The notes beneath the pieces were generated by a model, which was not told the origin of the DNA, searched no databases, and was given only the letters and a program-made list of their open reading frames with translations. From Onthophagus taurus (Eukaryota; Arthropoda; Insecta; Coleoptera; Scarabaeidae): 64,000 nucleotides of DNA. The stretch is taken from contig NC_091967.1 in NCBI RefSeq assembly GCF_036711975.1, forward strand, positions 12,896,001 to 12,960,000, given 5' to 3'. Both the position numbers and the translations under genes were made by a program. Positions 30,564 through 39,000 of this stretch are shown here, piece after piece (position 1 is the stretch's first letter; every line of letters starts with the position of its first letter).

Positions 30564-32660
30564 TTAATTAAATTGTTATTTTGTTGTTTATGTTATTTAT
30601 ACTTAATACAAAACAATTTACACAAAGTTTGTTATTTAATTGTTAATTCGTTATAATAAAATTGTTATTAGTTAAATTTATAATGTTATAAATAAAAAGA
30701 TTATTTTATTGTAGTTCAGGAAACATTTTATTTAAAATAATTGTATATTCGAAGCTATAACATGTGAACACTTTCCCGTAATTCTAAAAAATTTATACAT
30801 TTATCATACAAATATCTATGGTACAAAACTAGCGTGCTACGTACAAAATTAGACTGTAGTGAGCTCAAAAACGTTCATATATTACGTTTTAACCGTATTT
30901 AAATAATTTTCCCTTCATCATCTAAATCTATCTACAATATATAAATTACATTTTTGTTTTTTTTTGTCTCTCAAACATACTACAAATGTTGTAATTAAAT
31001 ATTTTCTTTTTTATTTAGAGCACTACGAACGCTACTAATTTAGTACATTTTAATAGTACACTTTAATTGTGTACTAATTTTTAATAGTACATCTAATAAG
31101 TAATATAAAGAAGAGGTCATTAGTTTTTTGAAAGGGTTACAACGATGACCGTAATTTTATCTTCTATTATTAGTATTAGTTATGTAAATAACATGTAATT
31201 TAAAACTTTTATTTCTATGAAAATAAATAATTCTTCTAGTATCAACCCTTGCACTCTCAGCAATGTTACATGTTTATTTAAAACATTTTTGACACATAAT
31301 AGTTTTATTTATTTATATATTTGGTTTGTGCCTTGTACATTTTTAACTTGATTGTTTATTAATTTATTTATTTCCAGACACATTATTTCCATAAATAGTT
31401 TTATTTTATTATTATGGATTTATTTTCAGTTAAATAAGATATAATAATTATCATGATCTTGTTTATTATTTTTTTTCTTTCAAAAAAGCGCTATACGTAG
31501 CAAGCAACGTGTTTTAGTATTATTTACTTTTTTAGAGGAATAATAAAAATGGATTAAATTTTTTTTGGGTAGATTTTATTTTTATATTTTCCTCGAAAAA
31601 TGTAATTGACTGAAGCCTGCCAAGAGTGCGCCCTTGATGAAATAGGCCATTTGGAAACATATACCGCCTGCACCTTGGATTCAGCAGGATTTGACTCGTC
31701 AGAACGATAAATTCAAAACATAAATTTATTCTTCTTAAGTACGTTATACACGGATACGTTGTATATATTTAAGTTAAATGTAAGTTATTTAAAAGTTTTT
31801 CGTTTCGTTAATAAACGCATTTTTCATTAAAATTTTTAATATTATAGTGTCATTTGCATATTTTCGGGGATATTTTAATCACGAAATGGCCGATAATTTA
31901 ATATTTATGGTTATAAACGGCCTCTATTATAATAGATAATTATCTATGTTATCTAGAAAAGCGATACAATTTTTATTAATATAAATACAATAAAGTGAAT
32001 TTTTCAAATATTTTTTTAATAAAATTGTTTTAAAAATAAATTTTAAGTTAAACACATTTAGATTTTTGTAACTAGGTTTCTTCTAAATTTCGCATGCATA
32101 AATTTTATAAGTATTAGCACATTCGTTCCATAAAATATTATATGATTATATACAAATTTTGGCTCTATTTTATTAATTTTAGTTTACTTTTTTATTTAAC
32201 TTTTATTGGCTATTGCTCAATTTCAAATTGCTATTGATGTCACAGTTGTTATTAACTAGATGCCAAAATTTCTTATACTTATACTAATAAGAGAATATTT
32301 TCGCAGCTTTTTTATGAATTAATGAAAACCGAGCAACAGCGAACAACATTGATTGTTTGACGCCATAATATACATAGCTTCTAAAGTAATCAATTTATTT
32401 TTAAATTTTTTATTCTCTACTGTACTATTACAACTAATTTGCACGCCCTTTTACGAACAGCAAAAACAAATTGAGCAATATAAGTTTCGGTTGAAGTCCC
32501 AAATTTGTATTTTTTTTAAATAAATTATACAACATCTAATTTTATTTATTATTACCTGATAGGACTGTTTAATTATTTTTTGCAGTGCTTTTTTAACTGA
32601 TTTTTTACGTACTCTTAATAACCATATTGTTATTATCAAGTGTATTGTTTAATTGTTAAG
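30564..32660. other. AT-rich intergenic region
   Basis: The MICU3-like 3' UTR has AATAAA near 30691. The next 1.9 kb is extremely AT-rich with many homopolymer runs. A cluster of TAGTAC and AGTACA words lies at 31040-31100, with no supported gene or RNA. The promoter and 5' UTR of the cationic peptide gene lie at the right end. Confidence 0.45.
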
Positions 32661-35067
32661 ATGAAAATTTTTAATGTCTTGTTATTAATATTATTTGTAA
32701 TAGCAATGATTAATAATATTGTTTATTGTAAGAAGAAAAAGAAAGTAAATTGGAAAAAAATTGTGAGTAAACTAAAAAGATCTTTTTAATAATATAAGTA
32801 CAAAGTTTCATCTTTGAGCACGAGTTGAGAAAAAGTATTTTCAAGTTTATTTTAGATACTTATTACGAATTTTTTCTCAGATTTTCAAGAAAAGTTTATT
32901 TATTTCATACAAAAGTATTTTTAGGAATTATTTAAGAACCATTTCATGACAGTTTGAAGATGATTTGAGATCTATTTGTAAGATCTATTCTAAATCTAGT
33001 TAAATTGGAGTTGCTTTAGAATTCTATGTGCATACTAGAGTGACGAGCTTTTAAAAGAACAAAGCTTCAATATATTGACCAGAACATACAGAGCACACTA
33101 ACTAACCACTATCTGTACCCGGACATCGCAAAGGTTGATTGGAAATATGAGGCATATCTGAAGATGAACAAGTTGCAGAATAAATTTGAACTCGTGATTT
33201 GATATGGAAGAGTCATGTGTCCTTAAGAAATTCATTTTATCAAAATTGAATGATTCAGTGTATGATTTAGGTCTCACTAAGAATAACAAACAGGTCACAT
33301 CAACTAGACATTCAATTTGGTGGTCACCCTGTGGCGCACAAACCAACTTCACAGTACCTAGGTGTGATCTTGGATAGAACCCAGAACAGCTTCAACCCTG
33401 CGGTACTCGGCTCTAGGATTTTTACAGTTTGCCGAATACTGCTCATCATAAATTTCACCATGCGAACAATCACTGGCTGCAGAAAAACTGCTCCCATACA
33501 CTGGCTTTCTACGCTCAGTTACATTCCAAAGCTTAAGCAGCTTCATGCACCATGATCAAATTTAGACCCAACCCAACCCTGCTGTAGACTATAAGACAGC
33601 TAAGACTCTACTCAATGAGAACTTTAACATAGAACGGAATTGGGGAAATAAGCCCCGGAAATAAACCGACACGTGAACACATCAGCAAGTCAATTGATTT
33701 TGACTTCCCTGCCGCATCTGGAAAACTGCTAACAGGATTCGACCAAAGCACGGCTTATGCAGAGACAACCATTGAATGTATATTGTTCAAAATTGCGAAA
33801 TATCGGATTGGATTGACTTTGTATTTTGTTTTATTCTCTATATGTGTTAAATTTAAGTCTTATGTAGAGAGAGAGATATCACTTAGTAAAATGCAACTAA
33901 TTGGCGATTTCTTCTTAATACCTCTAAAAGCCTCAGACTATGTTCTTTTATAGAAAAGCAATGTTGGCCAGAACATACATACCACACTAACAAAACACAT
34001 TTTTACCAAGACAACATAAAAGTAGTTACCAAAAAATCGACAGAACATTTGCTATGAGGTTGGATTACGTCATGTGAGGCAGATCTAAAGATGAACCCAG
34101 TAAAAACTAACAATGATGAATTAGCATTGATTTAGAAGAAATGGTTTTGTAATGAATTTTTCTAATCATGACTACAAACCACTTAATTTTTCTAATTATT
34201 TTATTTGGTATTCAGAAATTTACTCTGAAAGGAATCAATCTAATTCCAGTCAAACCTCACCCATTTATAATTCCTTTTAATAACAATCTAACTTAACACT
34301 GGTCATATCCAACTCATAAATCTAATCCTAACCCAACCTCAAACAACTGGAAGGTCATTTCGAATTTAATCAATGCTAAACTTGATTGTTTTCTAAGTGA
34401 TAATTTAAAAAGTATCCAAGTTTTCCTTCGATTTTGGTAAAAGTGAGTACAATGCACAACTGCCTAACAAATTTAGAAACATGAGCATTGAAGTTATAAA
34501 TATATAGAATAGGAGAAATCCGCTCCCCATAATTAATAATCATCTATCATTCTCTCATTTAGAGTTCTTATATTTCGGAAACCAGCTCTCCATGTGACTT
34601 AGTCTTCCACATTAACTAAACTTGCAACAAATGTATTTTTTATCAGAAAAGGTTGCTAATTTATCATCAATGTGAGAAAGTTGAGTGTTGACCATACCAT
34701 TTAATATTTTTTATTTAATAGAGTTCGTTCTATTTACTTTTTTTACCACTTTTCTTGGGGTATGTACACATTTCCCGACAAAGAGAAGAAGAAATAAATT
34801 AAACAAACGTTGTTCCTAACCACAATAAATATTGTGGTTTATCTAAATCTTGTTAATCTATTGATGCCTTATAAAAATAAGAGAAACTTGAGTGTTGAAA
34901 AAAATTCGTAATCAGCCTAAAATTAACATAATTATACTTTTCCCTTTTTATGTTCAAAAATTATAACCGATTCTAGTTTAAATTTCTTTTTGAAGGGTAA
35001 TGGTGCAGTAAAAGGAGCTCAAGTAGGTCTTCCCATAGCAGCTGGTATTAAAGCTTTGATAAAATAA
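32661..35067 (+). CDS. Cecropin-like cationic secreted peptide
   Basis: Two exons, 32661-32762 and 34996-35067, join at a phase-0 intron (donor GTGAGT, acceptor TTTTTGAAG) to give 57 residues. Residues 1-23 are a strongly hydrophobic signal peptide ending VYC. The predicted mature part (24-57) has ten lysines and no acidic residue: a run of five lysines, then VNWKKI, a glycine-rich turn, GAQVGLPIAAGIKALIK and a stop. A Trp-Lys-Lys-Ile start, followed by two amphipathic helical stretches around a Gly/Pro hinge, is the pattern of insect cecropins, which act by disrupting bacterial membranes. This mature peptide is slightly shorter than usual and lacks the typical arginine near position 12. Family membership is inferred from composition and architecture only. 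The 2.2 kb intron holds retrotransposon relics. AATAAA lies at about 35079. Confidence 0.6.
33040..33800 (+). mobile_element. Jockey-like non-LTR retrotransposon relic
   Basis: Broken plus-strand frames show the end of a non-LTR reverse transcriptase: SQYLGVILDRTQNSF (family: YLGVxLDRxLxF), then RTITGCRKTAPIHWLSTLSYIPKL (family: RxITGCxxxTPxxWLxxLxxIxP). A scrap like the C-terminal CG..HxxHxxxxC region lies near 33640-33780. Stops and frameshifts are frequent. It lies in the intron of the cationic peptide gene. Confidence 0.6.
33935..34130 (+). mobile_element. Second fragment of the same retrotransposon
   Basis: This stretch repeats, with many changes, the segment that begins the copy at 33.06 kb: CCAGAACATACA.ACCACACTAACAAA..CA, and GGCAGATCTAAAGATGAAC at the end. 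It is a diverged duplicate fragment without an open frame. Confidence 0.45.
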
Positions 35068-36082
35068 ATTCTTAGTGAATAAAAAGATCGTTTAAATTTC
35101 CTATTCATTTCCAAATCATAACACATCATCATTTATCCTTCATCTCACACTGCAACAATAATAGTAACATTAAAATTTTTTTTCACTTACATATCTAAAT
35201 TCGTAAATTACACTTATAAAAAGGTTTCGTTGATATCCATATTGTTTCACATCTATAACATTAAATTGTACAATAAATGCGAATATATAGTTTTTAGTTT
35301 TACTTTTTTTTGATTGGAATGTATAATTTCATCTTTGGCAACGATACATGGTTAGTAGTCTATTAAAAGCAACTAACTTAAAGATGAAGAAAAATCTATT
35401 ATTTAAACATTAAAGAAAAAGATATAAGCAACACGTATGTTAACGACCTGATAATTTATTGTTCATTTGAGAGGTATCACATTAAATGCACGTAATTAAT
35501 TAATTAATAAAATTTTAAGTAAGATTAGTAAAATGATTAAGTTACCAAAGATGTGTGTATTGGTGTTATCCTATGCAGTATTAAAAAAATAATCACTAAA
35601 GTAATCAGATTTTGGAAAAATAGATGATTAAGATCTTAACGAAAAAATTTGTACTTTAAAAAACTTTTTGATTTTACTTTTAGTCACTTTGATTTTATAT
35701 TCGAGGTAAAATGCGCTGCTAAAATCACTAAATAGTAATTATATAATCATTTTACTTTATCGAGAATTTCATCATTAAATTAATTAATATACAAATATAT
35801 GAATGTAATAACTATAATTGACTGCTTTTGTCTTTACGATCTAAGCTACGACGATAAACTCTAGTCATAACAACGGTTTTATCAATTGATGTTTTTAAAT
35901 TTTCTGTTTTCGTAAGCTTTGTTAAATTAGTTTTTTACTCTTTTATTTTATTTTTTGTTTTGTTTAATTCAGTAGTTATACAGTCGACGGATCTTGGCCA
36001 TTATATACTCGTAGTCTCTGACAAAGAGTCCAGTTATAGGAAATCGGGTCGATGGAAAACATCCACCAAAAGGAAAGGGTAG
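35068..36082. other. Spacer between peptide gene and GPCR 3' end
   Basis: The stretch contains the peptide gene's 3' UTR and the 3' UTR of the minus-strand GPCR gene. It is AT-rich. No gene, repeat or RNA is recognised. Confidence 0.5.
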
Positions 36083-39000
36083 TCAGTCGTCTGCTTCCAT
36101 ACCTATAATGAAAAATTAATTTAATCATTAATGGTTTTAATAACCTCATTAGAGTTACACAGAAAACTTTATCAGATTAGGAGATAGTTAGAGTATTTTA
36201 AGTACTTAATGAAGATCTCACAAAATTCGATTTGATTAATTTTAACCACTTCTTAATCAATAATTAAATTTCACACAAAGCCATTAGTTAACATAAGTAT
36301 TACACATATATATAACACAAATATGCAACAAATGTGCTCAACAACAATACAATTTATATATTTACCTTTAATACTTATTGTTACAAATAAGGCATCAATT
36401 TTTTAATACCATTTTTATTAATGAAAACGTCGACCAAAATCTATAAAAAAGTCATTTTATATTAAAAAAATTTACATTAAATTAATCATTTTTGATGGCT
36501 TTGTATAATTAATTTCTATGGGCGAAGAGACAAACAAAATTTAATTCTTACCTATAAGTTCAGCTTGCATACGTCCTTTATATCGACAACAAATCGTCAT
36601 ACAGAAAATCCTTAGAGCGAGTCGAAATTGGGGACTCAAAAAAATCAAAATTAACGACTTCCACAACGAGTTCATAAATCCAATCCAAACAATACCAAAA
36701 TGAAGGAACGGCATTTGGAACTTAACACCAGTAAAGTACTCGTACAATTTGACCCCAACAAACGGTGTCCACGAAATCCAAAATACAGCGACGAGTACAA
36801 ACGACATAATATGACTCGGATTCGACAGATTCTCCGACAACGCCGTCGCGTATTCTTTATCGTGGATTGGAACTCCGCTTTTCAGTTTCCTCATCATATT
36901 AAAAATGTAGGTGTAAGTATAAATGATCGTAATCAAACTGGGACCTAAGATCAAAATCCCCAAAGTGATCGAATAAGCCGCCATATTTCCCCAGTTTAAC
37001 ATGCAGATGTAGGATTCTTTGTCGAAATTTGGTTCGTTGAAGCCTAATAGTGGCGGACAGCACATCATCGCTGCGGAAATCCATGTGAATGCCATCCAAC
37101 ATTGACATCTAGTTTTGGTTTGAATGGTTTCGTATCGAAGTGGTTTCCTCACTGCCAAGTATCGATCCACACTTATCCACATAAAGGTGTAAACGGTTAC
37201 CGCCCAAAGCGTTACTTCTACGTAACCAACTATACGGCATACAACATTTCCATAAACCCATTGTTGAACTAGTGCTGGATATACGGAAAGTGGAACGACC
37301 AATAAACCACAGAGTAAATCCGCGACGGATAATGATAGTAGGTAACAGTTGATGACATCAGTTTGGCCTAAAAAGCAAACAAAATTATAAGTAAATTATA
37401 TTCTAGTATTAAAGTGTTGAAATTCTTAAAGTAAGTATCGACTCTTGAAATCTTTTGAGTTTCTTTTAAAAATAGTTGTTATTCTTTGAATCCGTCGTCG
37501 GCAACCGGAACAAATGTTAATCCGAGAGAGAGCGAGAAAAGTGCTTTTCGTGAAAATGTGGCGGATGTTTCCACCAACTTTCCATTCAAGGCCCTCGCAA
37601 ACTTTCGGTAAGATATCTCTCCCCGCTGTACCCGACGTACGTCTCTGATAAATGGCCATTTAGTTCCCGCTTGCTCGGTTTCATAATTTATAGAATCGAA
37701 TTCGAGAATTATAGTTGTTTTTGCGATAATAAATATCATCTTGTTTTTCTCTCCATATTTTTATGTTCCCTTTTTTTTGAATAAGCAAAAATGTTTTAAT
37801 ATGAAATTTAATCTTGTTTACGTATGTTATTGTTGATTTACACTACAAAGGATTAATTGAAAACTGCGAAAAACCAACGTACAAAGCTTGAATTTCACAA
37901 TTTATTTCTGAATTTCAGTGAAATTTAACGTGATTCACATAGTTGAAATATCGATTTAAAAATGATATTAGAGGGAACATTTTTCGGCTACATTTTAGCA
38001 ATAATTCACAAAAGAAAAGCTTTTAAGGTCATACCGGTTAGCTTCACGCATATGAATCATAAAATGCAAGCCGTAATTTATCTGCCAAATACGGGACAAT
38101 AAAAATACCGTGGTGCATGTGATATAAAATAATGGGCTTTATATCGCGGCAAAACGCCAGAGTGAAGGTTAAATTGTAGGGTTATCGATTATTATTTTGC
38201 TAAATATATTAAATTTATATACTCTTGGCTATAAGCCAAAATTAAATTGTACTGGAAATAACGTATCGCTTTCCAACATAACATCTGTAATATGCACACA
38301 GCTCATTATGCGACACATTGTTTATGCTTGAAGAACATTTGTAGTAGTAGTTATTCAAACGTTCGAAATTGCTTTTGAAGTCATAAAATCAATTCCAATT
38401 TATAATTAATAGGAAAACTGTCGGTGAAACTAATTGGAACGGCGTCACTCAACATTCAATCAATCGATCAACTACACCTGCTGGGTACCTAATTTGCAAA
38501 TCATTCAATCGATACCATACCATATGCATATGCCAATTAATTCCTTTAGTTAACTGATGCTAATTGTAAGATTACACCTGATAAATTGCACCTAATTATT
38601 TCTATTTAACTTTTAACAATACACACTACTGATTCGGAAAATCGGATACTTTAATTAATAATTGGTGATATTTCCACAAGGATCCTTCAAGAAATTAATT
38701 GTATAGCGAATTTTGAAAGTTATCGATGAAAATTGCAACATCGAAAATTTTATCAAAACTTCAAATATTGTTTTCTCAAAAACTAAAAATTATTTTTCAA
38801 AACGTGTTGGTTCATTGGAAAGAGGGCACTTTTATTAAAATTTTGGGAAATTTTCATACTTGTATTCCAAGAAATGGATTTTATACGAATTTTTAAAACT
38901 TAATCGGCGGAAATTACAAAATTCGAAAAAATTGTCGATTATTTTAAAAATTTATTTCTCAAAAACTAAAAGTGATTTTTCAAAACGGCTTTTTGTATTA

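What the first reader, a model, noticed from the sequence alone, without database searches (positions are those of the whole stretch)
32661..35067. Candidate undescribed cecropin-like antimicrobial peptide gene hidden in two tiny exons
Seen: a 34-codon first exon with a clean signal peptide, a phase-0 intron, and a 23-codon second exon. The predicted mature peptide of 34 residues carries ten lysines and no acidic residue, with WKKI near the start and a Gly-Leu-Pro hinge. Known: insect cecropins have Trp-Lys-Lys-Ile starts and two helices around a Gly/Pro hinge. Inference: a divergent, lysine-only, short cecropin-like peptide. Exons this short are routinely missed by annotation.
Basis: partly seen in the sequence, partly recalled or inferred. 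Interest (0 to 1): 0.75.

Follow-up and report, generated by a model that had tools for sequence, protein, structure and literature searches.

The report
Likely divergent cecropin gene, two exons
A tiny two-exon gene in what looks like a beetle genome probably encodes an unusual, all-lysine relative of the insect antibiotic peptide cecropin, because its signal peptide, its WKKI motif and the place of its intron resemble two true cecropin genes found elsewhere in the same genome; nothing yet shows that it is expressed.

Summary
The own genome holds two clear beetle cecropins on another contig (A matches published oxysterlin 1 at 37 of 38 residues). Both have a phase-0 intron directly after W-R-K-F or W-R-K-I; the candidate's follows W-K-K-I. 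The junction pattern TGGARRAARWTYGTRAGT occurs four times in 290.8 Mb: both cecropins, the candidate, and one site without a signal-like frame. The mature peptide's only Pfam match is Cecropin (12.5-12.7 bits, below cut-off; oxysterlin 3 scores 13.8); 0 of 60 shuffles match it. Exon 2 is the weaker half: it shares LP[VI]xxG[VI] with both cecropins, but alignment does not lift it clearly above chance. The proximal kB-type sites and TATA boxes of the two cecropins are missing, and the intron is 2,233 bases with repeat debris, not 55-62. Best reading: a divergent cecropin paralogue, expression unproven. An unrelated lysine-rich peptide, a decayed cecropin and chance remain open. New variant of a known kind, moderate interest.

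The parts
32661..32762 (+). coding exon 1: 23-residue signal peptide plus KKKKKVNWKKI, phase 0
   Evidence: ends at W-K-K-I as cecropins A and B end at W-R-K-F and W-R-K-I
32661..32729 (+). presumed signal peptide MKIFNVLLLILFVIAMINNIVYC (cleavage after V-Y-C inferred; no signal-peptide program was run)
   Evidence: hydrophobicity 3.72 against 3.46 and 3.79 in the two cecropins
32763..34995 (+). presumed phase-0 intron, 2,233 bases, GTGAGT ... TTGAAG
33060..34130 (+). dispersed-repeat debris inside the intron
   Evidence: apart from itself, 35 partial matches at 67-91% identity elsewhere in the genome, a lower bound; internal diverged repeats
34996..35067 (+). coding exon 2: GNGAVKGAQVGLPIAAGIKALIK and stop
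   Evidence: LP[VIL]xxG[VIL] shared only with cecropins A and B among 5,125 segments
35078..35083 (+). AATAAA polyadenylation-type signal, starting at the 11th base after the stop codon
32572..32585 (+). possible 3' splice site upstream of the ATG (ATTATTTTTTGCAG), which would put the promoter behind a 5' UTR intron
   Evidence: position checked; role is inference
31867..31876 (+). only GGGRNNYYYY (kB-type) match within 1 kb upstream, at -794

Best explanation
A divergent paralogue of the cecropin family. The transcript is spliced at what looks like the cecropin intron. The precursor enters the secretory pathway and loses a 23-residue signal peptide. The released peptide of 34 residues (or 29, if the KKKKK leader is trimmed at basic residues) carries net charge +10 (or +5), binds anionic bacterial membranes through the lysines and Trp, and inserts its hydrophobic segment after the Leu-Pro hinge (LPIAAGIKALIK). 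Shown here: reading frames, splice signals, intron after the same W-[KR]-K-[IF] motif as in the genome's own cecropins, hinge motif, composition. Inferred: splicing, secretion, helix formation, membrane killing and any expression.
For: Two real cecropins in the same genome share the plan: A, MNFYRIFVFVLIAVALMCGQTDAGSKRWRKF^EKRVKKIFEETKEALPVVQGVVGVATAVGR, and B, MNFYRVFILVLVIFCLLSGQTEAKWKGWRKI^EKKVKKVFKHTKEALPVVQGVIGVAQIVGR; the intron (^) falls after W-[RK]-K-[IF] in all three. Anopheles gambiae cecropin D has two exons with a 102-base coding part in exon 1 ending 10 residues into the mature peptide (PMC11554196, passages); the candidate's is 102 bases and ends 11 residues in. The junction pattern has 4 sites genome-wide, 3 with a signal-like frame (the fourth has hydrophobicity 0.83 against 3.72). 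Of 8 one-mismatch sites with a donor-like GT that I read, 0 have an ATG-started signal-like frame. The only Pfam match of the mature peptide is Cecropin, E 0.11-0.13, and 0 of 60 shuffles match that family at E up to 1. Oxysterlin 3, a published beetle cecropin, scores 13.8 bits, E 0.05. LP[VIL]xxG[VIL] is in exon 2 of A, B and the candidate and in no other of 5,125 segments (the fourth row there is a shorter reading of B).
Against: No score reaches the Pfam cut-off of 25 bits; the full precursor matches four other families weakly and not Cecropin. Identity to A and B is 14% and 19%, and the free alignment is ungapped up to the hinge: it lines up Leu-Pro but not WKKI with WRK[FI], and puts the intron three codons off (34 against 31 codons). 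Searches of the genome with PF00272, oxysterlin 3 or B did not find the locus, and searches with the candidate found only itself. Exon 2 is not the best local exon under one scoring, and a looser hinge pattern also hits 5 unrelated rows. Hinge and junction patterns were chosen after seeing the sequences. Proximal kB sites and TATA box are absent. The intron is 36-41 times longer than those of A and B.
Confidence: 0.57

Rival explanations
1. A real secreted lysine-rich antimicrobial-type peptide that is not a cecropin: exon 1 is read without splicing as a 42-residue frame ending KKKKKVNWKKIVSKLKRSF, a short amphipathic peptide like the bee venom peptide lasioglossin, or exon 1 is joined to some other exon.
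For: The frame stays open for 8 codons past the donor. VNWKKI is, by recall, the start of lasioglossins; 16 papers hold the string, several of them titled on lasioglossin III (search listing). Hydrophobic moment 0.60 against 0.57 for lasioglossin III typed from recall. Exon 2 is statistically weak.
Against: GTGAGT is a strong donor after the same motif as in A and B; read through, A and B also continue V-S-K after the junction because the donors encode it. Exon 2 as joined completes a cecropin-like hinge. A shared hexapeptide with a bee venom peptide is best taken as convergence (inference).
Confidence: 0.17
2. A decaying cecropin pseudogene: an old duplicate that kept a readable frame but lost its promoter and its first helix.
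For: No proximal kB sites or TATA box; repeat-filled intron; weak first helix; cecropin pseudogenes are known in insects, including the beetle Tribolium castaneum (PMC6929098, section 4).
Against: Start, stop, splice signals and frame are intact. Against A and B all acidic residues are gone and a lysine run is gained, which is not what neutral decay predicts (inference). A possible 5' UTR intron acceptor at 32572-32585 would move the promoter out of the stretch scanned.
Confidence: 0.13
3. Chance: an unexpressed signal-like frame that happens to end at a good donor, joined by eye to an unrelated open stretch.
For: AT-rich DNA gives 105 signal-like frames ending at GT in 194 kb, the three genes included; semi-global exon 2 scores are not above background, and one unrelated frame pair outscores the candidate (45 against 44).
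Against: About 0.008-0.016 chance junction-pattern sites with a signal-like frame are expected in the whole genome; shuffles do not match Cecropin.
Confidence: 0.13

Closest known systems
Oxysterlins 1-3 (cecropins of the dung beetle Oxysternon conspicillatum, PMC5706684, passages) and this genome's cecropins A and B
   Same: Signal peptide of about 23 residues; Trp followed by basic residues; phase-0 intron after W-[RK]-K-[IF] (seen in A and B; the oxysterlins are known as transcripts); Leu-Pro hinge, LP[VI]xxG[VI] in A and B; cationic.
   Different: Candidate has no acidic residue and no Arg, a lysine run before the motif, a stretch between intron and Leu-Pro three residues shorter, no Gly-Arg end as in A and B (amidation of such ends is recalled knowledge), a 2,233-base intron and no proximal kB sites; 14% and 19% identity to A and B.
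Anopheles gambiae cecropin D (PMC11554196)
   Same: Two exons, 102-base coding part of exon 1, lysine-rich N-terminus (six lysines by that paper).
   Different: A typed cecropin with measured activity. Compared by the paper's passages only; its sequence was not aligned here.
Lasioglossins (bee venom peptides)
   Same: VNWKKI hexapeptide (string found in 16 papers, listing; assignment to lasioglossin recalled).
   Different: 15-residue single-helix venom peptides without hinge (recalled); convergence assumed.

Membership tests
Insect cecropins (PF00272) | Score above the curated Pfam cut-off (25 bits) | tested here: not met
   12.5-12.7 bits. Oxysterlin 3 and this genome's A and B also miss it (13.8, 13.9, 17.8 bits), so the cut-off does not discriminate among these beetle members.
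Insect cecropins (PF00272) | Published cecropin signature, which demands an acidic residue at its fourth place (PMC6929098, section 4) | tested here: not met
   The mature peptide has no D or E, so it cannot fit.
Insect cecropins (PF00272) | Two coding exons, exon 1 ending about 10 residues into the mature peptide | tested here: met
   As read from DNA: ends 11 residues in; A and B end 8 in; Anopheles CecD ends 10 in. Splicing itself not shown.
Insect cecropins (PF00272) | Intron site of the genome's own cecropins, phase 0 after W-[RK]-K-[IF] | tested here: met
   Counted from the start codon it lies at 34 and not 31 codons, and a free alignment does not line the motif up.
Insect cecropins (PF00272) | Trp at position 1 or 2 of the mature peptide in most members (PMC6929098) | tested here: inconclusive
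   W8 of the 34-mer, W3 if the lysine run is trimmed; A has W5, B has W2 and W5.
Insect cecropins (PF00272) | Basic amphipathic N-terminal helix, Gly/Pro hinge, hydrophobic C-terminal helix | tested here: inconclusive
   Leu-Pro hinge and hydrophobic end present. WKKIGNGAVKG has moment 0.61 (2% of shuffles reach it), but the 17 residues VNWKKIGNGAVKGAQVG give 0.38 (7%) against 0.63 and 0.72 for 20-residue stretches of A and B; no structure was predicted.
Insect cecropins (PF00272) | kB-type sites close upstream, as in A and B | tested here: not met
   One match at -794 in 1 kb; A has several from -331 to -132, B one palindromic site at -163. A 5' UTR intron could hide the promoter.
Insect cecropins (PF00272) | Expression and antibacterial activity | not testable with these tools
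   No RNA data, no assay.

The most novel reading that the evidence does not exclude
An escaped cecropin: an old paralogue that kept only the cecropin frame (intron after WKKI, Leu-Pro hinge), left immune (NF-kB) control, lost every acidic residue and gained a lysine run, and is now made constitutively in one tissue (reproductive tract, gut or gland), as Andropin is in flies (recalled comparison).
Probability: 0.22. Interest if true: 0.5.

Novelty: new variant of a known kind. Interest (0 to 1): 0.37.

Why it matters
If real, it shows that cecropins can drift beyond the reach of family models and of exon-by-exon homology searches while keeping the intron after the same motif, so intron site plus signal peptide plus hinge could serve as a search rule for missed antimicrobial peptide genes in beetles. 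It would also be a natural lysine-only cecropin-type peptide with no acidic residue.

Tried and rejected
Genome search with the Pfam Cecropin family found nothing, not even the true cecropins A and B, so its silence is no evidence. Search of solved structures gave no match. A first genome search with an invented 60-base string served only to learn the window's place, and the third protein was meaningless; neither is used as evidence. Other paralogues of the candidate: none found. Near-miss junction sites: 92 sites at up to one mismatch, the 4 exact ones included, against 190 for the reversed control pattern; of the 88 one-mismatch sites I read 10 in 9 loci (8 with a donor-like GT, 2 tandem sites on C16), and none has a signal-like frame; 78 were not read. 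The fourth exact junction site (C5) lies beside short repeats, with an ATG-started but not hydrophobic frame. A 74-codon open frame inside the intron (33331-33555) has no Pfam match at E up to 0.01.

Full report
The observation. The two exons are present exactly as described. Exon 1, 32661-32762, reads MKIFNVLLLILFVIAMINNIVYC KKKKKVNWKKI and runs into GTGAGT. Exon 2, 34996-35067, follows TTTCTTTTTGAAG and reads GNGAVKGAQVGLPIAAGIKALIK and a stop; AATAAA follows at 35078. The joined frame is 174 bases. The mature peptide of 34 residues holds ten lysines and no arginine or acidic residue.

The genome. The window is 12896001-12960000 of contig 2 of a 290.8-Mb, 33-contig assembly. A search with oxysterlin 3, a dung beetle cecropin (PMC5706684, passages), found two cecropin genes on contig 7: A at 10269648-10269408 and B at 10163324-10163077, both on the minus strand (coordinates on the stretches; sequence). 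Each has a small phase-0 intron (55 and 62 bases by the coordinates) immediately after W-R-K-F (A) or W-R-K-I (B). Anopheles gambiae cecropin D has the same plan, with a 102-base coding part of exon 1 that ends 10 residues into the mature peptide (PMC11554196, passages).

A caution on that agreement. Counted from the start codon, exon 1 has 34 codons here and 31 in A and B. A free alignment puts no gap before the hinge: it lines up the signal peptides and Leu-Pro, leaves WKKI opposite other residues, and sets the introns three codons apart. Lining up both the motif and the hinge needs three residues gained before the intron and three lost after it.

How rare is the junction? The pattern TGGARRAARWTYGTRAGT, which covers W-[KR]-K-[IF] and a GTRAGT donor, occurs 4 times in the genome (reversed control: 2): the candidate, A, B, and a site on contig 5 beside short repeats, whose upstream frame is not signal-like (hydrophobicity 0.83 against 3.72). 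Base composition predicts 1.5 sites and a second-order model 3.0. About 0.5% of GT dinucleotides close a signal-like phase-0 frame (102 of 19,463), so 0.008-0.016 chance sites with such a frame are expected in the whole genome. The pattern was written after seeing the three sequences, so this figure flatters the case. At one mismatch there are 88 further sites; 10 were read, in 9 loci, and none has a signal-like frame.

Exon 2. Local alignment to the exon 2s of A and B ranks it 1 of 52 segments starting between 32790 and 35800 but 129 of 5,125 over 194 kb; against recalled moth and fly cecropins the ranks are 2 and 154. Under semi-global scoring the best partner of exon 1 is another segment, and an unrelated pair elsewhere outscores the candidate (45 against 44). 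The hinge LP[VIL]xxG[VIL] is found in A, B (two readings) and the candidate and nowhere else among the 5,125; a looser form also hits 5 unrelated rows. Both patterns were chosen afterwards. The mature peptide's only Pfam match is Cecropin, E 0.13 for the 34-mer and 0.11 for the 29-mer without the lysine run; the full precursor instead matches four other families weakly (best E 0.013). None of 60 shuffles of the 29-mer matches Cecropin at E up to 1, though four other families were each matched by one shuffle. For scale, A, B and oxysterlin 3 score 13.9, 17.8 and 13.8 bits on the Cecropin model, all below its cut-off of 25.

Further points against. Identity to A and B is 14% and 19%, and genome searches with oxysterlin 3 or B do not find the locus. 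A has several kB-type sites (among them GGGGAATCCT at -160 and GGGGTATCCC at -132), a TATA box at -97 and an initiator at -66; B has GGGGTTCCCC at -163 and TATATAA at -105, with no well-placed TCAGT initiator. The candidate has one kB-type match at -794, at the background density of 0.46 per kb, and no TATA or TCAGT-type element in the last 300 bases. A strong-looking acceptor at 32572-32585 may mean a 5' UTR intron (inference). The intron is 2,233 bases and holds dispersed-repeat debris with 35 partial relatives elsewhere.

How it would work. By analogy with cecropins: secretion, electrostatic binding through lysines and Trp, and insertion of the hydrophobic stretch after the Leu-Pro hinge. 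WKKIGNGAVKG is amphipathic as a helix (moment 0.61), but the 17 residues VNWKKIGNGAVKGAQVG, with four glycines, reach only 0.38, against 0.63 and 0.72 for the first helices of A and B. Its membrane activity is therefore a guess. The lysine run could be trimmed by basic-residue proteases (inference), giving VNWKKI..., a start that I recall from lasioglossins and that 16 papers hold (listing); I read that as convergence.

Verdict. Works like a cecropin: probable. Member of the cecropin family: likely by gene anatomy, but it fails the Pfam cut-off and the published signature, so I file it as a probable divergent relative and not as a typed cecropin. In the searches I found no report of it; the strings WKKIGNG and GLPIAAG occur in none of the 5.39 million papers held. 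Passages only were seen of PMC5706684, PMC11554196, PMC3066212, PMC4874388 and PMC4065263; of PMC6929098, passages and section 4.

Noticed in passing
G000:C7:10269408-10269648 and 10163077-10163324 (L007, L008): Two canonical beetle cecropin genes about 106 kb apart; A differs from the dung beetle oxysterlin 1 mature peptide at 1 of 38 residues, and both carry proximal kB-type sites and TATA boxes.
   Followed up: yes
G000:C16:162923, 163497, 166558: Three sites reading W-[KR]-K-F-V-I within 4 kb on one strand; the two that were read give GSWRKFVI after a stop. A repeat of unknown nature.
   Followed up: partly
G000:C11:32464193-32465296: Seven copies of TGGAAACAAATTGTAAGT spaced 181 bases apart, with further copies on contigs 1, 2, 5, 6, 7 and 8: a tandem and dispersed repeat.
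   Followed up: no
window 36544-37302: Minus-strand open frame of a rhodopsin-family G-protein-coupled receptor (Pfam 7tm_1, E 1.7e-30), 1.5 kb downstream of the candidate.
   Followed up: partly
window 38845, 39208, 39571: GGGAAATTTT three times at a spacing of 363 bases, probably a tandem repeat.
   Followed up: no
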